This document shows, piece after piece, positions 16,470 to 41,301 of a DNA stretch of 48,475 nucleotides. The position numbers were made by a program, and so were the translations under genes. Under the pieces are notes generated by a model. The model worked only from the letters and a program-made list of their open reading frames with translations. It did no database searches and had not been told where the DNA came from. Position 1 is the stretch's first letter; every line of letters starts with the position of its first letter. Source of the stretch: an uncultured bacterium (GTDB lineage Bacteria; Cyanobacteriota; Vampirovibrionia; Gastranaerophilales; Gastranaerophilaceae); assembly GCA_902795965.1 (NCBI GenBank), contig CADBNI010000066.1:1-48475 (forward strand), read 5' to 3'.

Positions 16470-17047
16470 TATTTTTGCCCTCCAAACACAGCTTCTTCCA
16501 CAATAGCACAAATAATATGCCCTATCATAATGTGCGACTCCTGAATTGTCGGAGTGGAAGATGACGGAACATGAATTATATAATCACATAAATTATCCAT
16601 GGCACATTCTTTTTCGCCAACAAGCCCTACGGCTACAATCCCTTTTTTCTTTGCTTCTTCAAGTGCTAAAACAATATTTTTGGAATTTCCTGAAGTCGAT
16701 ATTCCGATAAAAATATCACCTTCATTCCCGTTAGCCTGAACCTGTCTTGAAAAAGATTTTTCATAACCGTAGTCGTTTCCTATTGCAGTCAGAATTGATG
16801 TATCAGTTGCAAGAGAAAACGCACTCAAACCGGGTCTGTCAAAAAAGAATTTTGAAACAAGTTCACCCGCAATATGCTGAGCATCACCCGCCGAACCGCC
16901 GTTTCCCGCAGTCAAAACTTTTTTACCTTTTTTGTAAGCATTAACAATTTCATCAGCTATTTTTTGAATTGTCGATAATATCTTTTCATCATTTAAAATT
17001 TTGGTTTTTGTATCTATTGACGCTTGAATATAATTTTTAATATCCAT
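16469..17047 (-). CDS. gmhA: sedoheptulose 7-phosphate isomerase
   Basis: 192 aa, the normal GmhA length. The SIS-domain motifs are complete: TAGNGGSAGDAQHIAGEL (about 45-62), ATDTSILTAIGNDYG, GISTSGNS and the late TPTIQESHIMIGH with the zinc-ligand His. It converts sedoheptulose 7-phosphate to D-glycero-D-manno-heptose 7-phosphate, the first step of heptose activation. GAGG precedes the ATG, which starts 2 nt after the fusion gene ends. It lies in the middle of the three-gene heptose block, transcribed together with hddA. Confidence 0.95.
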   Translation of the reverse strand: MDIKNYIQASIDTKTKILNDEKILSTIQKIADEIVNAYKKGKKVLTAGNGGSAGDAQHIAGELVSKFFFDRPGLSAFSLATDTSILTAIGNDYGYEKSFSRQVQANGNEGDIFIGISTSGNSKNIVLALEEAKKKGIVAVGLVGEKECAMDNLCDYIIHVPSSSTPTIQESHIMIGHIICAIVEEAVFGGQK

Positions 17048-17049
17048 TT

Positions 17050-18210
17050 TTATTCCTCTATAATTCTACATTTTAAATACGGTAATTTTATATTGTCGAT
17101 TTTTGGGTTATCACCGAGCATTATTGAATTTTTTAAGTCGATTTTAAGTTTTTCACATGCCTTCAAAATCATTCCGGGATTAGGTTTCCTTAAAATTGTA
17201 TCGTAAGAATACTCTTTTATGACACCGTCTTTGTGATACGGGCAAAATTCAATATCATCAAAATTTATTCCTTTAGACAAATAAAATTCTTTTATTCCGT
17301 CAAAACCTTCCTGCATGCCCTGAAAATCAAACTTTCCTTTGGCAATTCCCGCCTGATTTGTAACCATTACAATATAAAAATCTTTCTTTGCATATTGCTC
17401 GACTGTACTAATTGTATTTTCGATAATTTGAAAATCTTTTCCATGCGGATATTCGGTGTTTACAATCAAAGTTCCGTCTTTATCGACAAACAGAGCGGGT
17501 TTTTGAGTTTTTGAAATCCAATTCGGAATTAAATCCTGAGCTTTGTAATAATCTTCGGGAATACCGATATCAATAAAACACCCGCCTAAAGGCAAACCGT
17601 ATAATTGACCGTCAGCAAGAAGTTTCGGGAAAATTTCGGTTTCAAGCGAGACAAATTGCCCGTCAAAATTTTGGGCATATTTTGCAAGAACTGATTTTTT
17701 TATAAAATAAATACCACCGTTAATAAACCCGTCAATTCTGTCTTTTGGCAAATTACCTTTTTCGATAAAAGATTTCACTTTAAAATCATCATCAATATCA
17801 ACAAACCCGTATCTTTCCGCGTTATCTGTATATCTTAAAGCTATTGAACATGGTTTTCCAAAATCTTCCAACAGCGAATAATCAATATCAAAGAAGGTAT
17901 CACCGTTGATGACAAAAAACTCATCATCAAGTTTACCGTAAGCGTTCAAAATCGCTCCGCCCGTACCGAGAGCGGTTTCCTCTTTTATAAAACAGACGTT
18001 TTGTAAATCTTTAAAATAATTTTCAATACATTCGGATTTGTAACCGGTGAGAAAAACGAATTTTTCAAAGTTTTGAGACTTTAAAGTTTTGACTATATAA
18101 TCCAAAAACGGAATGTTTTTAATCGGAGCCATAGGCTTAGGCACATCAGAAACAACGTGAGAAAGTCTTGTACCGAAACCACCCGCAAGTATAACCGCCT
18201 GTCTACCCAT
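17050..18210 (-). CDS. hddC: fused heptose-1-phosphate guanylyltransferase / heptose bisphosphatase
   Basis: 386 aa with two enzymes in one chain. Residues 1 to about 230 are a nucleotidyltransferase with GGFGTRL and the VPKPMAPI motif, best matching HddC, which makes GDP-D-glycero-D-manno-heptose. From about 240 to the end is a HAD phosphatase of GmhB type with FVDKDGTL, TNQAGIAKG, RKPNPGM and LGDNPKID. GmhB normally has a zinc loop with C-P-x-H and a later C-x-C; here CPYH is present but the later pair is absent. The start follows GGAGG and overlaps the WbaP stop by 8 nt. The fusion supplies steps 3 and 4 of the pathway. Confidence 0.88.
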   Translation of the reverse strand: MGRQAVILAGGFGTRLSHVVSDVPKPMAPIKNIPFLDYIVKTLKSQNFEKFVFLTGYKSECIENYFKDLQNVCFIKEETALGTGGAILNAYGKLDDEFFVINGDTFFDIDYSLLEDFGKPCSIALRYTDNAERYGFVDIDDDFKVKSFIEKGNLPKDRIDGFINGGIYFIKKSVLAKYAQNFDGQFVSLETEIFPKLLADGQLYGLPLGGCFIDIGIPEDYYKAQDLIPNWISKTQKPALFVDKDGTLIVNTEYPHGKDFQIIENTISTVEQYAKKDFYIVMVTNQAGIAKGKFDFQGMQEGFDGIKEFYLSKGINFDDIEFCPYHKDGVIKEYSYDTILRKPNPGMILKACEKLKIDLKNSIMLGDNPKIDNIKLPYLKCRIIEE

Positions 18211-19573
18211 GCCTGCCTCCGAGAGCTAAAAATACGGCTTTTATCAGTATTCCGATTTCCCACAAAACATTTCTGTGTTTGAGATAATACAGATCGTATT
18301 GAAGTTTTTCAGCAATATCGTCATTCAAAACACAATGTCCCTGATTAATTTGAGCCCAGCCCGTCCAACCTGTTTTTACCCATTGACGGCAGGTATAATA
18401 AGGAATTTCTTTGGAATAAATCTTTACCAAATCTTCCCATTCCGTACGAGGCCCGACAATAGACATTTCGCCTTTTAAAATATTTATCATCTGAGGAATT
18501 TCATCAAATCTTGCACGTCTTACAAACTTGCAAAAGGGAATTACTCTGTCGTCTTTGTCCTGATCGCCCGTATCAGCGACTTTACCTTCTTTCGGAACGT
18601 AATCATTCATATACATTGTACGCAATTTGTACATTTTAAAATGTTTTCCGCCCCTGCCTATTCTCATTTGAGTGTAAACAGGATTACCGCCGTCCGTCAA
18701 TTTTACTCTGATTGCGATATACAAAAGTATCGGGAACGTAACCGTTAAAATTATTGATGCGGCAATTATATCGTAAGCTCTTTTACAAAATTTATATACA
18801 TAAGAACGCTTGTTCATATATGTATAAAAAAGCCAATTTATCGACATTCTGTCCACAAAATATTTACCGGTAACCATTTCGTAAAAATCGGGCATTTTAT
18901 AAACTTTTATGCGATTTGGAATACCAAAAACCATTTTTGATAAGAGGGTATCTTCCATTCTGCGTGTAACCGCAACAATTACAATGTCGATTTTTTCGGT
19001 TTTTATAATATCTTTCAAATCTTGAGAATGTCTGAAAACTTTCAAATCGGTATCAAAATTCATTTCGTCTTCGGGCTGATTATCTTCCCAAAATCCTGCA
19101 ACATTCATCTTTAGAGCTTTTTTATTAATAATTTCTTCCGCAATAAGTTTTGCATTCTTGTTTGTACCGACAATTAAGACATTTTTAGGCTTTTTGATAT
19201 AAAAAAGATAATAATGGAACATTGCCCGATAAAGATACATAAAAATATAAACAATTAAAATATTTTTTACCAAAAACCAAAGCGTAAAAATCCAATTAGC
19301 AAGTATCAAGAGCAAAAGTGCCGCGGGTACATGAGCAAATATCACCCCTTCAAAAAGCAGATAGGCATTCTTCTTTGTAATGTTAAATTCGCGAATTTTA
19401 TAATGCCCCTTGAGAAACATCGTAATAATTCCCGCAGTAACAATCAAACCTGCCGTAAGCATCGCTCCCGCATACGACAAACCCAAATGATAACCCGTAT
19501 ATATTGAGGTTATCGAAAGGATTATGAAATCAAATAAAAACATTAACAGAACTGATTTTGATAACATATGCAT
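18203..19573 (-). CDS. undecaprenyl-phosphate sugar-phosphate transferase (WbaP/WcaJ type)
   Basis: 456 aa. Four to five N-terminal membrane helices are followed by a Rossmann-like CoA-binding domain (VLIVGTNKNAKLIAEEI, about 130-147), another hydrophobic segment near 275-295 and the conserved catalytic domain. That domain shows KMYKLRTM, RRARFDEIPQMINILKGEMS, VGPR and GWTGWAQI. This is the full-length polyprenyl glycosylphosphotransferase architecture, which loads the first sugar-1-phosphate of the repeat unit onto undecaprenyl phosphate. Two closely spaced ATGs exist (19573 and 19567); the first is better spaced from GGAAA. It lies just after the export gene. Confidence 0.92.
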   Translation of the reverse strand: MHMLSKSVLLMFLFDFIILSITSIYTGYHLGLSYAGAMLTAGLIVTAGIITMFLKGHYKIREFNITKKNAYLLFEGVIFAHVPAALLLLILANWIFTLWFLVKNILIVYIFMYLYRAMFHYYLFYIKKPKNVLIVGTNKNAKLIAEEIINKKALKMNVAGFWEDNQPEDEMNFDTDLKVFRHSQDLKDIIKTEKIDIVIVAVTRRMEDTLLSKMVFGIPNRIKVYKMPDFYEMVTGKYFVDRMSINWLFYTYMNKRSYVYKFCKRAYDIIAASIILTVTFPILLYIAIRVKLTDGGNPVYTQMRIGRGGKHFKMYKLRTMYMNDYVPKEGKVADTGDQDKDDRVIPFCKFVRRARFDEIPQMINILKGEMSIVGPRTEWEDLVKIYSKEIPYYTCRQWVKTGWTGWAQINQGHCVLNDDIAEKLQYDLYYLKHRNVLWEIGILIKAVFLALGGRHG

Positions 19574-32695: not shown

Positions 32696-33105
32696 ATTAA
32701 TTATACTTTATAAATTAATTATTCGACCGCTTTCTTTGTTCGTGCGCGTAGCGCAAGAAACTTCTTATAATCACCACTTAACGAAACAGCAACAAAAGCG
32801 CGTACTGTTTGAGCGGTAAAGTCCTGATATTATTAATGAGATTGCGACGTCCTCACTAACGTTCGTCCTCGCAATGACATAAAAATATAGCGAGTTTACG
32901 TGCCTTAAGTTGAGTTTAGTGGTGATTAAACGGTTATGGCGCAGTTTCTCTTTCTTTCCTCCATTTCTTTTTCTTTGCCTCGCCCAAAAACAAAGAGAAA
33001 GAAATGGAGTGCGGGGTTTTGGGGTGCATAACCCCCACGATAAATAAATATAAAATCATATAATACAAATAGCAATTTTTTGCGTGTTCATGTTTTTATA
33101 TATAA
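32696..33105. other. 410-bp intergenic region made of inverted repeats
   Basis: No gene. It contains an outer inverted repeat AATCACCACT (32769-32778) / AGTGGTGATT (32918-32927) enclosing a hairpin ATTGCGA (32841-32847) / TCGCAAT (32869-32875) with CTCACTAACGTTC in the loop. A second, 19-bp stem with one mismatch follows (32959-32977 / 32991-33009), and then a GGGG/CCCC hairpin near 33020-33036. These are non-coding repeats, perhaps two adjacent MITE-like elements. Confidence 0.55.
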
Positions 33106-35910
33106 GTGGTTAGAATTAGTTCAATTAATAGTGTAAATAATTATTTTGCGCAAAATAAAACTGCATTCAAAGGGTCGCAAACTCAAACAAATCCTCAAAT
33201 TGAACAGTTGAGCGACATCAAACCCGATTTTGCCGTCAAAACTCCCGTTGCATATACAAAGACAGAGGAAATAGAATTTCCTTATGACACAAAGGCTTAT
33301 TGTTATAAACTTTCTAACGGACAGCGAGTCGTAATCGTTCCGCAAGAAGGAGAAACGGTATTACGAACCTATGTAAACACGGGTTCTATGAACGAAAAAG
33401 ATAATATTCGCGGAATCAGCCACTATATTGAACACAATCTTTTTAACGGGTCAAAAGGTCTGGAAGAAGGGGATTTTTTCAAACAGGTTGATAAAATGGG
33501 GGCTTCAACAAATGCGTCAACAGGGTTTGCGGAAACAAATTATTACATAAGTTCTAACCTCTTGAACGAAAATGATTTGGAAAATAAAATTAAACTTCAT
33601 GCCTCAATGCTTGAAAATCCGCTCTTTGCAACGGAAAAATTAGAAAAAGAAAAAGGGATTGTTAATTCCGAAATAAACATGATTACCTCAAATCCCGAAA
33701 ATATTGCGGTAAATAAAATGCTAAAAAATCTTTACGGGATAAAATCGGCTTCTACCGACATGATTGGCGGGACGACAGACAACATAACAAATCTTACACG
33801 CGAAGATGTCGTCAATTATTTCAACAACAATTATTATCCGGCAAATATGGTTACTGTTGTGACCGGTGAAGTTGACCCCGACAAAACAATCAAACTTATT
33901 TCAAAATACTTTTCTTCCAGCAAAAATCCGAAGGAAGGAAGATATTTTGAGAAATTAACCCCTACTCAAAAAGCAGTCAGAGAAGATATTATATCGGACA
34001 AAGCAACCGCAACAACAATAGTAACGGGATTTAACGGTCCAAAATCATCCGACACAAAAGAAAGAATTTACATGGAAGCGATTTTGACAATATTGTCGTC
34101 AAATCCTTCCTCGCGTATAACTTCAAAATTAAAACCTTTGAATGCCGATTGTGCAATTCAGGACGAGAAAATAAGTTCAAACCCGAATGACGGCAGAACT
34201 TATATGATTTTGGCGGAAAGTACGGAAGAAAATTCAGAAAAAGCACTTAAAACAATTTTTACTGAAATTGCAAATATCGCAAACAACCCTCCAAACGATA
34301 CGGAATTAAAAATTGCGAAAAAAGTTTTGCTCAAAGAGTTTTCCGCAATGCTTGAAAATTCTTTTGCAACCAACAATGCGATAGGAACTTCAATTCTCGA
34401 AGACAACAAAGATTATCTGAATATTTTTGAAGAAACCGTAAACAATATGACTTCTAAAGATTTGGCGGAAACCGCTAAAAAATACCTTGATGTAAACAAA
34501 GCCTCCGTAACAGTTGTTCACCCCTCAGGCGCAAGCGAAGAAACTATTAATAAAAATTATAATGCGGTATCTTTTACGGGAAGAAAAGAAGCAATAAATA
34601 TTTCAAACGTAAAAGAATACAATTTGCAAAACAATTACAGACTGATTACGAATAATTCAAAAACGGATAATATAGAAATTTTGTTCAAAATTTCAACAGA
34701 CAAAGATATCAAAACCAAACCTTCGGCTTCTGTTGTATTGAGCGAGCTTTTGAACGAAGGTTCGATATTCAGAAAACAGGAAGAATTGGATTCCGATTTA
34801 GCACAAGAAGGAATCAGCCTCGGATTTTCAGCTTCGGAACATTCAATCAGCTCCGCACTCGGCTGTGATACGACAAATATTGCCAAAACTTTCGCAAGTC
34901 TGAAAGAAGTTATAGACAATCCGAGATTTACCGAGGAAGATTTTCAAAATGTAAAAAGCAGAATTAAAGATGCAATTTTAACAAGCGAAAAATCCGCTTT
35001 TGACAAGTTGGACACGGAATTGTACAAAGGACTGTCCGAAAGCTACTCCAAAGATGAAATTCTAAAAGACCTTGAAACCATTACGCTTGAAGACGTAAAA
35101 AATCTTTATAAGGAATTGATTACTCAAGGCAAGGGAATAATCTCCGTTTCGGCACCGTTTGAGAGAAAACCCGAACTCAACGATATTTTATTTAACTCCG
35201 CGACTTCATTAACTCCGGTAAAATCATTGTTCAACAAAGAAATTCAATCGGCATATACTCCATGTGACAAGGTAAAAGTTCTGACCGATACGGATTACAA
35301 AAATCAGGCGGAAATTGTTGAAGCGTATAAATTTAAAATAACAGGAAATCTTAAAGACACCGCAACTATAAGACTTTTAAACACTATTCTCGGCGGTAAT
35401 CCTTCATCAAGGTTGTTTACGGACTTGCGTGAAAAAGAAAAATTGGCATATCACGTAAAATCAAATTACAGAAGTGTTGAAGATATCGGAGTTTTGACCC
35501 TGAAAATCGGTACGACAACCGATAACAAAGAAACGGGCGAACAAAATTTTGACAACGTAAAAAAATCCATTGACGGGTTTAATCGACATATAGAAAAAAT
35601 GAAAACCGAAAAAGTAACGGAAGAAGAACTTAATAACGCAAAATTAAGCCTGAAAAATTCTATTCTTAATTCCTGTCACGGCTCTGACGGCAAAAACAGT
35701 CATCTTTTGAAATCCGTTGATTCACCTTTTGGAATTTATCGTGACAATATGCTGTTAGACGAAATAGACAAAATCACCGCAGAAGATATTCAAACCGCCG
35801 CTAATTATATCTTTTCTGGCAAACCGACTTATTCAATAGTTGCAACCGAAGATACTTTAAATGCGAACAAAGATTATTTTGAAAATTTAGAAAAGATTTA
35901 TAATGCCTAA
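33106..35910 (+). CDS. M16-family zinc peptidase, two-lobed single chain
   Basis: 934 aa. The inverted zinc motif H106-Y-I-E109-H110 lies in the N-terminal lobe, with a further Glu (E189, NSEINM) at the expected distance. The C-terminal lobe has the non-catalytic NPSSRLFTDLREKEKLAYHV motif of M16 partners, so both halves are in one protein, as in pitrilysin-like forms. There is no signal peptide. The first 25 residues (VRISSIN, then AFKGSQ) resemble those of the two following proteins. The start is GTG; an in-frame TAA directly precedes it and no Shine-Dalgarno is seen. It probably degrades peptides or processes a substrate, with location uncertain. Confidence 0.9.
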   Translation: MVRISSINSVNNYFAQNKTAFKGSQTQTNPQIEQLSDIKPDFAVKTPVAYTKTEEIEFPYDTKAYCYKLSNGQRVVIVPQEGETVLRTYVNTGSMNEKDNIRGISHYIEHNLFNGSKGLEEGDFFKQVDKMGASTNASTGFAETNYYISSNLLNENDLENKIKLHASMLENPLFATEKLEKEKGIVNSEINMITSNPENIAVNKMLKNLYGIKSASTDMIGGTTDNITNLTREDVVNYFNNNYYPANMVTVVTGEVDPDKTIKLISKYFSSSKNPKEGRYFEKLTPTQKAVREDIISDKATATTIVTGFNGPKSSDTKERIYMEAILTILSSNPSSRITSKLKPLNADCAIQDEKISSNPNDGRTYMILAESTEENSEKALKTIFTEIANIANNPPNDTELKIAKKVLLKEFSAMLENSFATNNAIGTSILEDNKDYLNIFEETVNNMTSKDLAETAKKYLDVNKASVTVVHPSGASEETINKNYNAVSFTGRKEAINISNVKEYNLQNNYRLITNNSKTDNIEILFKISTDKDIKTKPSASVVLSELLNEGSIFRKQEELDSDLAQEGISLGFSASEHSISSALGCDTTNIAKTFASLKEVIDNPRFTEEDFQNVKSRIKDAILTSEKSAFDKLDTELYKGLSESYSKDEILKDLETITLEDVKNLYKELITQGKGIISVSAPFERKPELNDILFNSATSLTPVKSLFNKEIQSAYTPCDKVKVLTDTDYKNQAEIVEAYKFKITGNLKDTATIRLLNTILGGNPSSRLFTDLREKEKLAYHVKSNYRSVEDIGVLTLKIGTTTDNKETGEQNFDNVKKSIDGFNRHIEKMKTEKVTEEELNNAKLSLKNSILNSCHGSDGKNSHLLKSVDSPFGIYRDNMLLDEIDKITAEDIQTAANYIFSGKPTYSIVATEDTLNANKDYFENLEKIYNA

Positions 35911-35983
35911 AATCGTAATAATTCTAAATATAATAGCAATTATTTTTTTTCAGCTATATTATAAATAAAAAAGGAGTGTAAAT

Positions 35984-36451
35984 ATGCAAATTCAAGCTAT
36001 TAATTGCAGTAATTGTCCGAAACCGCGTTTTGCGGGCAAGCAGGGGTATGAAAATCCTATCAATAGAAATACGGAGAAAAATCTTGCAATCTGGACATCT
36101 TTGGGAGCAAGTTCTCTTGTCGGTGCATCAATAGCAGGTATCGGAAGCTGTTTTATTCAACAGGGAGCAAAAAACAGAGGTTGGAAATTAGGTGCAATAG
36201 GTGCGGCAGCTGGTTTGATTACGCTTGCACTCACGCTTCCTTCAAAGATTTACAACACTAAAGTCAATGCATTCGCCCGTGAAAAAGAAATGGACGTTTT
36301 CAGCCGCGACAGAGATTTGAAATCAAACATTATGGAAGAAGTCAATAAAGAAGTTAAAAACGAAGAAGTTTCTTTAGACGACAAAATTAATCATTATACT
36401 TCCGTTCAAATGGCAAATAACGGAAACGGAATGTTAATCAAAGGTGCATAA
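35984..36451 (+). CDS. two-helix membrane protein of unknown function (paralogue A)
   Basis: 155 aa. A short N-terminus MQIQAINCSN...RFAGKQ is followed by two hydrophobic helices (about 37-57 and 66-83) and a charged C-terminal tail. The block KIYNTKVNAFAREKEMDVF is nearly repeated in the next protein, as is the pre-helix NPINRNTEK. The two genes overlap by 1 nt (TAATG), which suggests co-translation and perhaps a heteromeric complex. AAGGAG precedes the ATG. No known family is recognised. Confidence 0.75.
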   Translation: MQIQAINCSNCPKPRFAGKQGYENPINRNTEKNLAIWTSLGASSLVGASIAGIGSCFIQQGAKNRGWKLGAIGAAAGLITLALTLPSKIYNTKVNAFAREKEMDVFSRDRDLKSNIMEEVNKEVKNEEVSLDDKINHYTSVQMANNGNGMLIKGA

Positions 36452-37002
36452 TGAGAATAAGTTCGGTTCAAAACAACTTATACTCATTCAAATCCGCCCC
36501 AAAAAATAACGACAAAAACCCAATTTCCCAAACAGGTGAAAAAGCCCTGTTGGTAAAAGGTACATTTGTTGCAGGTTTGGGGCTTGGTGCAAGATTGTTG
36601 TTTGAAATTTTTGACAGCAACTTTGTTTTCGATACCTTAGGTAACGAAGCGGAAAAAATTAACAAAAAAACCAACAAAGGACTTTCGCAAAATAAAAAAT
36701 TTCTGACGGGTCTGGGAATTTGGGCAGGACTTATAATGATGTTTATTGGCGGGTTTGCAACACTTTACACTCTTTTTATGACCCCCAAAATCAAATATCA
36801 GGGAAAAGTCAATGCCTTCCAAAAAAGTAAAGATATGGACGTATATATTAAAGGAAACAAAGCCGAAAAAGAAATTCTTACCCAAATGAACGAAAAGGCT
36901 AAATCCGCAGACGATAATGAAAAAGCCAAACTCAAAGAACAATATATTCAAATGCAGACAGCAAAAAACAGAGTACCTGAGTTTATTAAGCTGAAAAAAT
37001 AA
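36451..37002 (+). CDS. two-helix membrane protein of unknown function (paralogue B)
   Basis: 183 aa. The N-terminus MRISSVQNNLYSFKSAPKNN matches the M16 peptidase start (ISSIN...FKG). Two hydrophobic helices (about 29-47 and 84-108) are separated by a charged loop. The block KIKYQGKVNAFQKSKDMDVY and NPISQTGEK are shared with paralogue A. The tail is Lys/Glu-rich helix. It is translated from an ATG overlapping the previous stop. Function is unknown. A MITE-like repeat begins 25 nt after the stop. Confidence 0.75.
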   Translation: MRISSVQNNLYSFKSAPKNNDKNPISQTGEKALLVKGTFVAGLGLGARLLFEIFDSNFVFDTLGNEAEKINKKTNKGLSQNKKFLTGLGIWAGLIMMFIGGFATLYTLFMTPKIKYQGKVNAFQKSKDMDVYIKGNKAEKEILTQMNEKAKSADDNEKAKLKEQYIQMQTAKNRVPEFIKLKK

Positions 37003-39369: not shown

Positions 39370-41301
39370 CTACAATGAACCGCCGCCACCGTCACGGAAG
39401 TAGTCATAGTGCCTGATATCATCATAGTTATTAACATATTCCGCTTCAACATGTTTTTGGAATGTTGTCTGCGGAGCAGGTGCAGGTTGAACTTTTGTAC
39501 TTCTTGAAGCCAACAATGCATCAATATTCGGAGACATTGTTAATTCAAAGTGGAAACGTCCTACCTTGCTGTACGGTTCATAGTAGTTTCTGATTAACGG
39601 GAAGCCCCAATATAATCTTGCAGTCAAGTCAAGAGGCAACTGAACTCTTAAACCCATACCGATTGATGCTGCAAAGTAACTTCCATCCAAATGTGTTTCG
39701 CTTGCTGCGGGGAAAATACCTGCCGTATCAGCGAATATCGCACCTTTAACATATTTTCCGATAAACGGAATTTTTTCACCCGTTCTTGGGCTTGTAATTT
39801 CTCTCGGCATTAAGGGGAACATCAATTCACCGCTGATGAAGTAACCGTTTTTACCGATCATCAAACCTTCGGAATAACCTCTAACCGTAACCAAACCGCC
39901 TGTTTGCATTTGATCTAAGAATGGAATACGAGGATCTCCCGGAACAATTTGGTAATTACTTCTCAACTGACCGATTACACCGTGTGAAAAATCGTGCAAT
40001 CTTACCAAACTACCGCTGTATTTAAAGTAATTATTATCTCTGTCACTGTGGAAGATAGGAATTGAATAATAAGCATCCTGATTCAAATACCAAATACCGT
40101 ACTTGGTATCTTTTCTTGCCTGCAATGCCAATTCAACAGATGTAATGTTATCAACACTGCCCAATAAATCACGACCGTCAAGATTGAAATCACTGTATGT
40201 TCTTGCGCGTTTGTAGTTCAATGCCGCATACGATTTCAATTCAAAACCTGGTTTTCTTATTAACGGCTGCGAATAGTACAATGAATATTGGTAAGCGTTA
40301 CTGCCGATGCCATAAGGTGACCATTCACCGTATTTAACTTTTGCGAAGGTAGATGAGAACATAAACCCTACACGTCCGTCTTTTTTGTTAACGGGAAAGT
40401 TGTAGTCAGCAAACGGGCTTTGCGCACCGCCTGAGAAATATGAACCTATTGACAATCTGTCCCTATGACCGAACAAACTGTCCGCATAAATCATTGCACC
40501 GCCTCTAAGGCTACCCGTATTGTAACGACCCGCGTTATCCATAACACCCATAATATGGAACGGGAAGTTTTCCTCAGCAACGATATCAATATCCGTTGTG
40601 CCGGGTTTTTCACCTGCTTTAAGATTTGCGGAAAGGTTAACACCGTCAGTATATCTGTTAAAATCAAGAATATCTTTTTCAAGTTCAACGATATCAAACA
40701 ACTGACCTTCTTTTTGAGGCAATCTTCTTGTAATATAACCTTCTTTAGTCCATCTGTTTTGTTGAACCGTAATATTACCGATTTTACTTTCAGTCAAAGC
40801 AATATAAATATTTCCGTTAGAAACCGTTTGCTCCGGTAAAAATGCTCTTGCGGTAACAAATCCCTTTGCCGCATACATATTGTTAATTTGGTTAACAACA
40901 TTTTGAATATCTTGGATATAAACATTTTTACCAATCAACGGTTGAGTTAATTGATTGATTTCTTCTTTTGTAAGAATTTCGGAAGGTGCAACTTCTATCG
41001 AATTTACGAATACGCTTGTCGTATCCGATTCTTCGACACCGGCTTGAAAGCCGTTGTTATCATAGTTTTGAATGACATTTGAAGCATCAGGATTATACTT
41101 AGATTCTTCATATTTACTATAATCCTTATTTTCAATATCTGTTTGATATTTGTCTTTCAAAAAGTCGGAATCATGAACCTGATTTCCGTAAACCGTATTC
41201 GTAAAATTACTGTAAAAATCCGCTTTTGCAGGGGCAACGGATACAGCAAGTGCCAAACATAAAACTGCACCTAAAATATTTGTTCTGTTAATCTTTTTCA
41301 T
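39370..41301 (-). CDS. TpsB/ShlB/FhaC-type outer-membrane transporter
   Basis: 643 aa. A signal peptide (to about 28, VAPAKA) is followed by a linker and a POTRA_2 domain (about 90-165: VNQINNMYAAKGFVTARAFL, ALTESKIGNI). A ShlB-type POTRA/barrel follows with TVRGYSEG, the conserved VRGY motif of loop L6, near residue 470. It ends in a beta-rich barrel. It should export or insert a large partner protein across the outer membrane (two-partner secretion) or act in a related Omp85 role. No TpsA-like exoprotein is in the window. AAGGTG precedes the start. The Skp-like gene is divergent. Confidence 0.9.
   Translation of the reverse strand: MKKINRTNILGAVLCLALAVSVAPAKADFYSNFTNTVYGNQVHDSDFLKDKYQTDIENKDYSKYEESKYNPDASNVIQNYDNNGFQAGVEESDTTSVFVNSIEVAPSEILTKEEINQLTQPLIGKNVYIQDIQNVVNQINNMYAAKGFVTARAFLPEQTVSNGNIYIALTESKIGNITVQQNRWTKEGYITRRLPQKEGQLFDIVELEKDILDFNRYTDGVNLSANLKAGEKPGTTDIDIVAEENFPFHIMGVMDNAGRYNTGSLRGGAMIYADSLFGHRDRLSIGSYFSGGAQSPFADYNFPVNKKDGRVGFMFSSTFAKVKYGEWSPYGIGSNAYQYSLYYSQPLIRKPGFELKSYAALNYKRARTYSDFNLDGRDLLGSVDNITSVELALQARKDTKYGIWYLNQDAYYSIPIFHSDRDNNYFKYSGSLVRLHDFSHGVIGQLRSNYQIVPGDPRIPFLDQMQTGGLVTVRGYSEGLMIGKNGYFISGELMFPLMPREITSPRTGEKIPFIGKYVKGAIFADTAGIFPAASETHLDGSYFAASIGMGLRVQLPLDLTARLYWGFPLIRNYYEPYSKVGRFHFELTMSPNIDALLASRSTKVQPAPAPQTTFQKHVEAEYVNNYDDIRHYDYFRDGGGGSL

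What the first reader, a model, noticed from the sequence alone, without database searches (positions are those of the whole stretch)
33106..37002. Shared N-terminal 'ISSIN...F-K-G' tag on three adjacent, otherwise different proteins
The M16 peptidase (VRISSINSV...AFKGS), paralogue A (IQAINCS...RFAGK) and paralogue B (RISSVQN...SFKSA) share a short N-terminal pattern x-I-S/Q-S/A-I/V-N/Q followed by F-K/A-G/S within 25 residues. None has a classical signal peptide. A common sorting or secretion tag would explain this, and the peptidase could even process it.
Basis: partly seen in the sequence, partly recalled or inferred. Interest (0 to 1): 0.65.

Follow-up and report, generated by a model that had tools for sequence, protein, structure and literature searches.

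The report
Shared two-part N-terminal address tag
Three neighbouring proteins of a gut bacterium related to cyanobacteria begin with the same kind of short, disordered two-part tag, which turns out to sit on roughly 2-4% of its proteins and most likely addresses them out of the cytoplasm, possibly through a flagellum-type secretion machine that non-flagellated relatives also keep.

Summary
The window is a Gastranaerophilales (Melainabacteria) genome. All three proteins begin M-x-[IV]-x-x-[IV]-[N/Q], a polar linker, then F-x-[G/S/A]. In M16 orthologues the two blocks are 96% conserved, the linker 65% and the enzyme body 78%, and AlphaFold models the tag as disordered. A leave-one-out tag model finds 24 tagged proteins among 950 in about half of this genome (3.0 expected) and 8 among 183 in a held-out relative (0.9 expected). 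Two genomes lacking a type III export gate give 0 (0.3-0.5 expected). No tagged protein has a Sec signal peptide. The M16 and 5'-nucleotidase homologues in other families of the class do, and a tagged PRPP synthetase has an untagged housekeeping paralogue. All 57 Gastranaerophilales genomes searched keep a flagellum-type FlhA, even the 35 without flagellin; this genome also has FlhB, FliPQR, FliEFH and rod proteins. Best reading: a bipartite export signal, probably for that machine, like the FlgD signal. That it addresses proteins is well supported; the type III route is inferred. Adjacency of the peptidase to A/B is incidental, and nothing supports tag processing by it.

The parts
33106..33177 (+). 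tag of the M16 peptidase (residues 1-24): N block VRISSINSVNN, linker, F-K-G at 33166-33174
   Evidence: N block and FKG 96% conserved in 17 near orthologues, linker 65%, body 78%; residues 1-44 pLDDT < 50
33178..35910 (+). body of double-domain M16 peptidase with intact HxxEH (H106-x-x-E109-H110 invariant)
   Evidence: Pfam PF00675, PF05193; alignment A2; nearest NCBIfam models YfmH/YfmF, below their cut-offs
35984..36037 (+). tag of protein A (MQIQAINCSNCPKPRFAG)
   Evidence: orthologues keep M[QKR]I[SQ]AI[ND]...F[TAN][SAG]
36038..36451 (+). body of protein A, small membrane protein with two Gly/Ala-rich hydrophobic helices; no Pfam family
36451..36495 (+). tag of protein B (MRISSVQNNLYSFKS)
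   Evidence: orthologues keep M[RK][IV][SGE][SAPT][IV][NQ]...F[KTG][SAQ]; residues 1-21 pLDDT < 50
36496..37002 (+). body of protein B, helical membrane protein, paralogue of A
   Evidence: no PDB fold match
33093..33105 (+). conserved TTTTTATAT(T/A)AA(T/G) directly before the GTG start, possibly a -10 box of a leaderless mRNA (inference)
   Evidence: same motif before the GTG/ATG in near relatives

Best explanation
The shared pattern is a bipartite, intrinsically disordered N-terminal address signal: small hydrophobic residues at positions 3 and 6, a polar Asn/Ser/Gln-rich spacer of variable length, and a Phe-x-Gly/Ser/Ala motif. Shown here: it is a genome-wide feature of Gastranaerophilales, it is under stronger constraint than the enzyme behind it, and it marks proteins or isoforms that lack Sec signal peptides although homologues have them. 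Inferred: the signal sends its carriers out of the cytoplasm through a flagellum-type III export apparatus (FlhA, FlhB, FliPQR, FliEFH and rod proteins in this genome), whose FlhA every Gastranaerophilales genome searched keeps, with or without a flagellum. By analogy with early flagellar subunits, the Phe motif would dock at the gate and the terminal hydrophobic residues would then open it. Confidence 0.43 is for the whole chain including the type III route; that it is an address signal at all I put at about 0.8.
For: Excess of tags in own genome (24 vs 3.0) and held-out G045 (8 vs 0.88), none in two genomes without FlhA (0 vs 0.47 and 0 vs 0.28). Two conserved islands around a free linker in M16; tag disordered in models. 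No signal-peptide-like start in 37 tagged proteins against 292 of 1272 others. M16: tag within Gastranaerophilales, Sec signal peptide in nearly all homologues of f10-f13 and f15. 5'-nucleotidase: Sec signal peptide in all 13 homologues from FlhA-less families f8/f9, none in 17 from FlhA-bearing families. Tagged PRPP synthetase with untagged 45-47% identical housekeeping paralogues in other Gastranaerophilales. Bodies of tagged proteins look compositionally like exported proteins: 16 of 24 called exported against 19% of cytosolic ones; Cys 0.59% vs 0.63% (Sec) and 1.45% (cytosolic). FlhA in 57 of 57 Gastranaerophilales genomes searched, flagellin in none of 35 of the own family; FlhB, FliP/Q/R, FliE, FliF, FliH, FliM/N-like, FliK-like and rod proteins in own genome. 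Same order of parts as FlgD: SIAV at 2-5, spacer, FLTLL at 36-40 (PMC8983047).
Against: No direct link between tag and machine: tagged genes are not in the type III loci. f10 and f14 genomes have two FlhA copies but no clear tag excess (G059 1 vs 0.2; G064 hits are mostly other things). M16 in FlhA-bearing f10-f13 and f15 still uses Sec. The 5'-nucleotidase swap is a single change on the tree across a long branch, so it is one event, perhaps between paralogues. Untagged proteins with equally polar N-termini also look exported by composition (p = 0.27 against tagged). Some tagged proteins carry ATP-dependent domains (PRPP synthetase, AAA, M41), which fit export only if they act inside another cell. 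The spacer is often shorter than the 19-24 residues FlgD needs, and the Phe motif (FxG) is not the FlgD motif.
Confidence: 0.43

Rival explanations
1. The tag is an export or sorting signal, but for another machine (an undescribed one, or recruitment to the cell surface).
For: All evidence for an address signal is neutral as to the machine; not every FlhA-bearing lineage has a clear tag excess.
Against: Only one secretin was found, probably that of the type IV pilus (inference); other secretion systems were not searched. Architecture and lineage distribution fit a flagellum-type export gate best.
Confidence: 0.2
2. The tag is a docking tag inside the cell: it recruits proteins to a membrane site, a scaffold or a compartment, comparable to encapsulation peptides.
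For: ATP-dependent domains among tagged proteins; A and B are membrane proteins; paralogue pairs with and without tag.
Against: Sec-exported homologues of M16 and 5'-nucleotidase; low Cys content like exported proteins. Shell or scaffold genes were not searched for.
Confidence: 0.2
3. No signal: the pattern comes from A/T-rich start codons, N-terminal composition and selective reading.
For: Loose patterns give near-chance counts (10 vs 6.4 by shuffling).
Against: Position-preserving permutation and leave-one-out still give 24 vs 3.0, and a held-out genome 8 vs 0.88; two conserved islands with a free linker in M16.
Confidence: 0.05
4. The tag is a presequence cut by the tagged M16 peptidase.
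For: M16 peptidases include presequence-processing enzymes (general knowledge); the active site is intact.
Against: The peptidase bears the tag itself, its homologues elsewhere in the class are Sec-exported, and it is not linked to A/B in relatives; no cleavage data.
Confidence: 0.05

Closest known systems
Early flagellar subunit export signal (FlgD: N-terminal SIAV plus gate recognition motif FLTLL; PMC8983047)
   Same: small hydrophobic residues near the N-terminus, polar unstructured spacer, downstream Phe-containing motif; flagellum-type export gate present in the same genome
   Different: Phe motif is F-x-[GSA], not FLTLL-like; spacer from about 3 to 45 residues; carriers are enzymes and membrane proteins, not axial flagellar parts; export not shown
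N-terminal signals of injectisome substrates (general knowledge)
   Same: first 20-50 residues disordered and rich in Asn, Ser, Ile, Thr; unrelated passenger proteins
   Different: those have no conserved motif as clear as this; no injectisome secretin of its own was seen here
Incomplete flagellar gene sets of Gastranaerophilales (PMC4040986, PMC3787301)
   Same: the same partial gene sets, reported as not encoding a functional flagellum and read as loss or genome reduction
   Different: here FlhA is found in all 57 genomes searched, 35 of them without flagellin, which argues for a retained function
Encapsulation peptides of bacterial microcompartments (general knowledge)
   Same: short N-terminal address tags on selected enzymes
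   Different: those are amphipathic helices; this tag is modelled as disordered
YfmF/YfmH M16 peptidase pair (NCBIfam NF047422/NF047421)
   Same: the two halves of the tagged peptidase match them best
   Different: fused into one chain, below both cut-offs, and tagged

Membership tests
Bipartite flagellar type III export signal | small non-polar residues near the N-terminus | tested here: met
   [IV] at 3 (or 4) and 6 (or 7) in all three proteins and nearly all near orthologues
Bipartite flagellar type III export signal | downstream Phe-containing docking motif at a distance of about 19-24 residues or more | tested here: inconclusive
   a Phe motif is present, but as F-x-[GSA] and often only 6-15 residues away
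Bipartite flagellar type III export signal | export gate FlhA/FlhB/FliPQR in the same genome | tested here: met
Bipartite flagellar type III export signal | signal needed for export in vivo | not testable with these tools
   no experiment possible
Sec signal peptide | hydrophobic core of about 10-15 residues after a basic start | tested here: not met
   0 of 37 tagged proteins; window proteins read directly
Peptidase family M16 | HxxEH zinc motif and M16 domains | tested here: met
   PF00675 8e-27, PF05193 7e-44; H106, E109, H110 invariant in 25 orthologues
Encapsulation peptide | amphipathic helix and shell genes | tested here: inconclusive
   tag modelled without secondary structure; shell genes were not searched for

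The most novel reading that the evidence does not exclude
Gastranaerophilales, including the non-flagellated gut lineages, run a filament-less flagellum-type secretion system that exports dozens of tagged proteins (peptidases, nucleotidases, duplicated metabolic enzymes, small membrane proteins), possibly into other cells, with a lineage-wide, readable N-terminal signal that lists its substrates.
Probability: 0.3. Interest if true: 0.9.

Novelty: new variant of a known kind. Interest (0 to 1): 0.72.

Why it matters
Nothing in the papers searched describes such a tag, or a working secretion system without a flagellum, in this common group of gut bacteria. If right, a simple sequence rule lists the proteins these mostly uncultured bacteria send out, and the 'degenerate' flagellar genes become a conserved secretion machine with a testable substrate set. 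Type III export signals are usually poorly defined in sequence, so a lineage with a readable one would be useful for that open question.

Tried and rejected
Regular expressions alone: too loose to separate tags from chance. The D-x-V-[ST]-F-x-G core seen in some tags is not a general element in this genome. G064 (f14) seemed enriched, but its hits include repeated copies of one ORF and a ribosomal-protein-like start, beside flagellar FlgK and a Flagellin_N protein: not counted as tags. Body composition as proof of export: weakened because untagged proteins with polar N-termini look nearly the same. Fold search of protein B: no significant match. Orthology of the tagged M16 against the second Gastranaerophilales M16 (about 864 aa) could not be settled. 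The protein between FliF and FliH has no convincing Pfam match even at E 5.

Full report
What was checked. The three ORFs are at the stated coordinates. The window lies in a 1.81-Mb, 85-contig genome; the close peptidase homologues come mostly from records named Gastranaerophilales or Melainabacteria. The peptidase is an M16 double-domain enzyme with an invariant HxxEH. A and B are paralogues, so the likeness of their tags is partly inherited; the peptidase is unrelated to them.

Conservation. Peptidase orthologues in near relatives begin VRINSINSVNNY...FKG. In 17 of them residues 3-12 are 96% identical on average, residues 13-19 65%, the F-K-G residues 96%, and the body 78%. More distant orthologues keep the kind rather than the letters (MLRINPLTPN...VLFKG; MIRITPSFGSG), and some (L047, L053, L054) keep little of it. 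A and B orthologues, read in about 27 genomes, mostly keep M-[QKR]-[IV]-x-x-[IV]-[NQD]...F-x-[SAQG] while the linker changes in length. AlphaFold gives pLDDT below 50 for residues 1-44 of the peptidase and 1-21 of B, although the rest of the peptidase is modelled well (mean 85.6). A strongly conserved disordered tail is what an address signal looks like.

Genome-wide occurrence. About 0.96 Mb of this genome was sampled as stretches and ORFs were called by script. A two-block model (N block, Phe block, free polar linker) built from 19 seeds was scored leave-one-out against a null in which residues are permuted within each position, so that start-codon and N-terminal composition biases are kept. 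At threshold 11: own genome 24 vs 3.0 expected (Poisson p 3e-14); G025 (same genus) 3 vs 0.68; G045 (another family of the order, held out) 8 vs 0.88 (p 4e-6); G059 (f10) 1 vs 0.20; G057 and G083 (f8) 0 vs 0.47 and 0 vs 0.28. G064 (f14) gave 6 vs 1.35, but inspection shows these are mostly not tags; among them are flagellar FlgK and a Flagellin_N protein, which are themselves type III substrates by general knowledge. The seeds were picked by eye, so the held-out genome is the cleanest test.

Carriers. Tagged proteins include the M16 peptidase, a 5'-nucleotidase, a protein with a weak glycogen-synthase-like stretch, one with a weak RelA/SpoT-like stretch, several small Gly/Ala-rich membrane proteins, and in G045 a PRPP synthetase, AAA and AAA-M41 proteins and a nucleotidyltransferase. 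The tagged PRPP synthetase is 45-47% identical to untagged copies in other Gastranaerophilales, including this genome: the tag appears to mark an extra isoform, although the untagged copy of G045 itself was not in the sampled stretch. None of 37 tagged proteins has a signal-peptide-like start, against 292 of 1272 others; the tag model itself disfavours hydrophobic starts, so this is a weak test.

Swap with Sec signal peptides. Across the class, homologues of the peptidase in f10-f13 and f15 begin with classical Sec signal peptides (hydrophobicity maximum mostly above 2.0); those of Gastranaerophilales begin with the tag. For the 5'-nucleotidase all 13 homologues from families f8/f9, which lack FlhA, have Sec signal peptides, and all 17 from f1, f10, f14 and f15, which have it, lack one, with no overlap in hydrophobicity. 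On the tree this is a single change across a long branch, so it is one event and could separate paralogues. It still says that proteins exported by Sec elsewhere carry a different N-terminus here.

Composition. A classifier trained on the bodies (residues 61 onward) of Sec-type and cytosolic proteins of 24 tagged bodies exported, against 19% of cytosolic and 78% of Sec-type ones; Cys content is 0.59%, 1.45% and 0.63% respectively. Untagged proteins with equally polar N-termini score nearly as high (49% called exported), so this supports but does not prove export.

The candidate machine. FlhA (PF00771) is present in 57 of 57 Gastranaerophilales genomes searched; the one miss among the 58 relatives, G057, belongs to another order. 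Flagellin is absent from all 35 genomes of the own family and present in most genomes of the other families, which usually hold a second, higher-scoring FlhA. This genome has FliE, FliF, FliH, FlhA, FlhB, FliP, FliQ, FliR, a FliM/N-like C-ring protein, a FliK-like protein and about five rod or hook-type proteins, with a FliJ-like and a FliO-like neighbour by reading. It lacks flagellin and the P ring. Earlier papers read such partial sets as loss or genome reduction (PMC4040986; PMC3787301). Retention in every genome argues for a function, and an export gate with a rod but no filament could be a secretion system.

Mechanism. In Salmonella FlgD an N-terminal hydrophobic signal (SIAV, 2-5) and a gate recognition motif (FLTLL, 36-40) act in sequence: docking at FlhB, then opening of the gate; the spacing matters (PMC8983047). 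The tag has the same order of parts. The differences are an F-x-[GSA] motif and a spacer that is often short. That the tag works this way is inference from architecture, not shown.

Verdict. A real, previously unremarked (in the papers searched) N-terminal address tag of Gastranaerophilales. That it is an address signal: about 0.8. That it leads out through the flagellum-type apparatus: about 0.43.

Noticed in passing
L116:3947-5425 (G000:C59): A 492-aa protein with only the C-terminal (cytoplasmic) half of FlhA (PF00771 positions 307-655) behind an unrelated N-terminal part; a similar protein of about 470-520 aa occurs in nearly all Gastranaerophilales genomes searched. Possibly a soluble receptor for tagged proteins.
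   Followed up: partly
window 33093-33108: TTTTTATAT(T/A)AA(T/G) directly before the GTG start of the peptidase is conserved in near relatives and no Shine-Dalgarno is seen: possibly a leaderless mRNA.
   Followed up: no
L016:6128-7381, L018:2731-3975, L089:14821-16197: Three copies of a 414-437-aa protein starting MGMAASQAR, no Pfam family over its cut-off in the one tested, body composition of two of them like exported proteins; candidate axial or secreted parts of the type III machine.
   Followed up: no
L154:15112-16752 and 16766-18379: Tandem tagged paralogues with a [IV]PRT motif shared with a tagged 100-115-aa protein near the peptidase locus of many relatives (e.g. L040:11223-11540).
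   Followed up: no
window 39370-41301: A 643-aa outer-membrane transporter-like protein (reads like the ShlB/FhaC type) with a Sec signal peptide; untagged.
   Followed up: no
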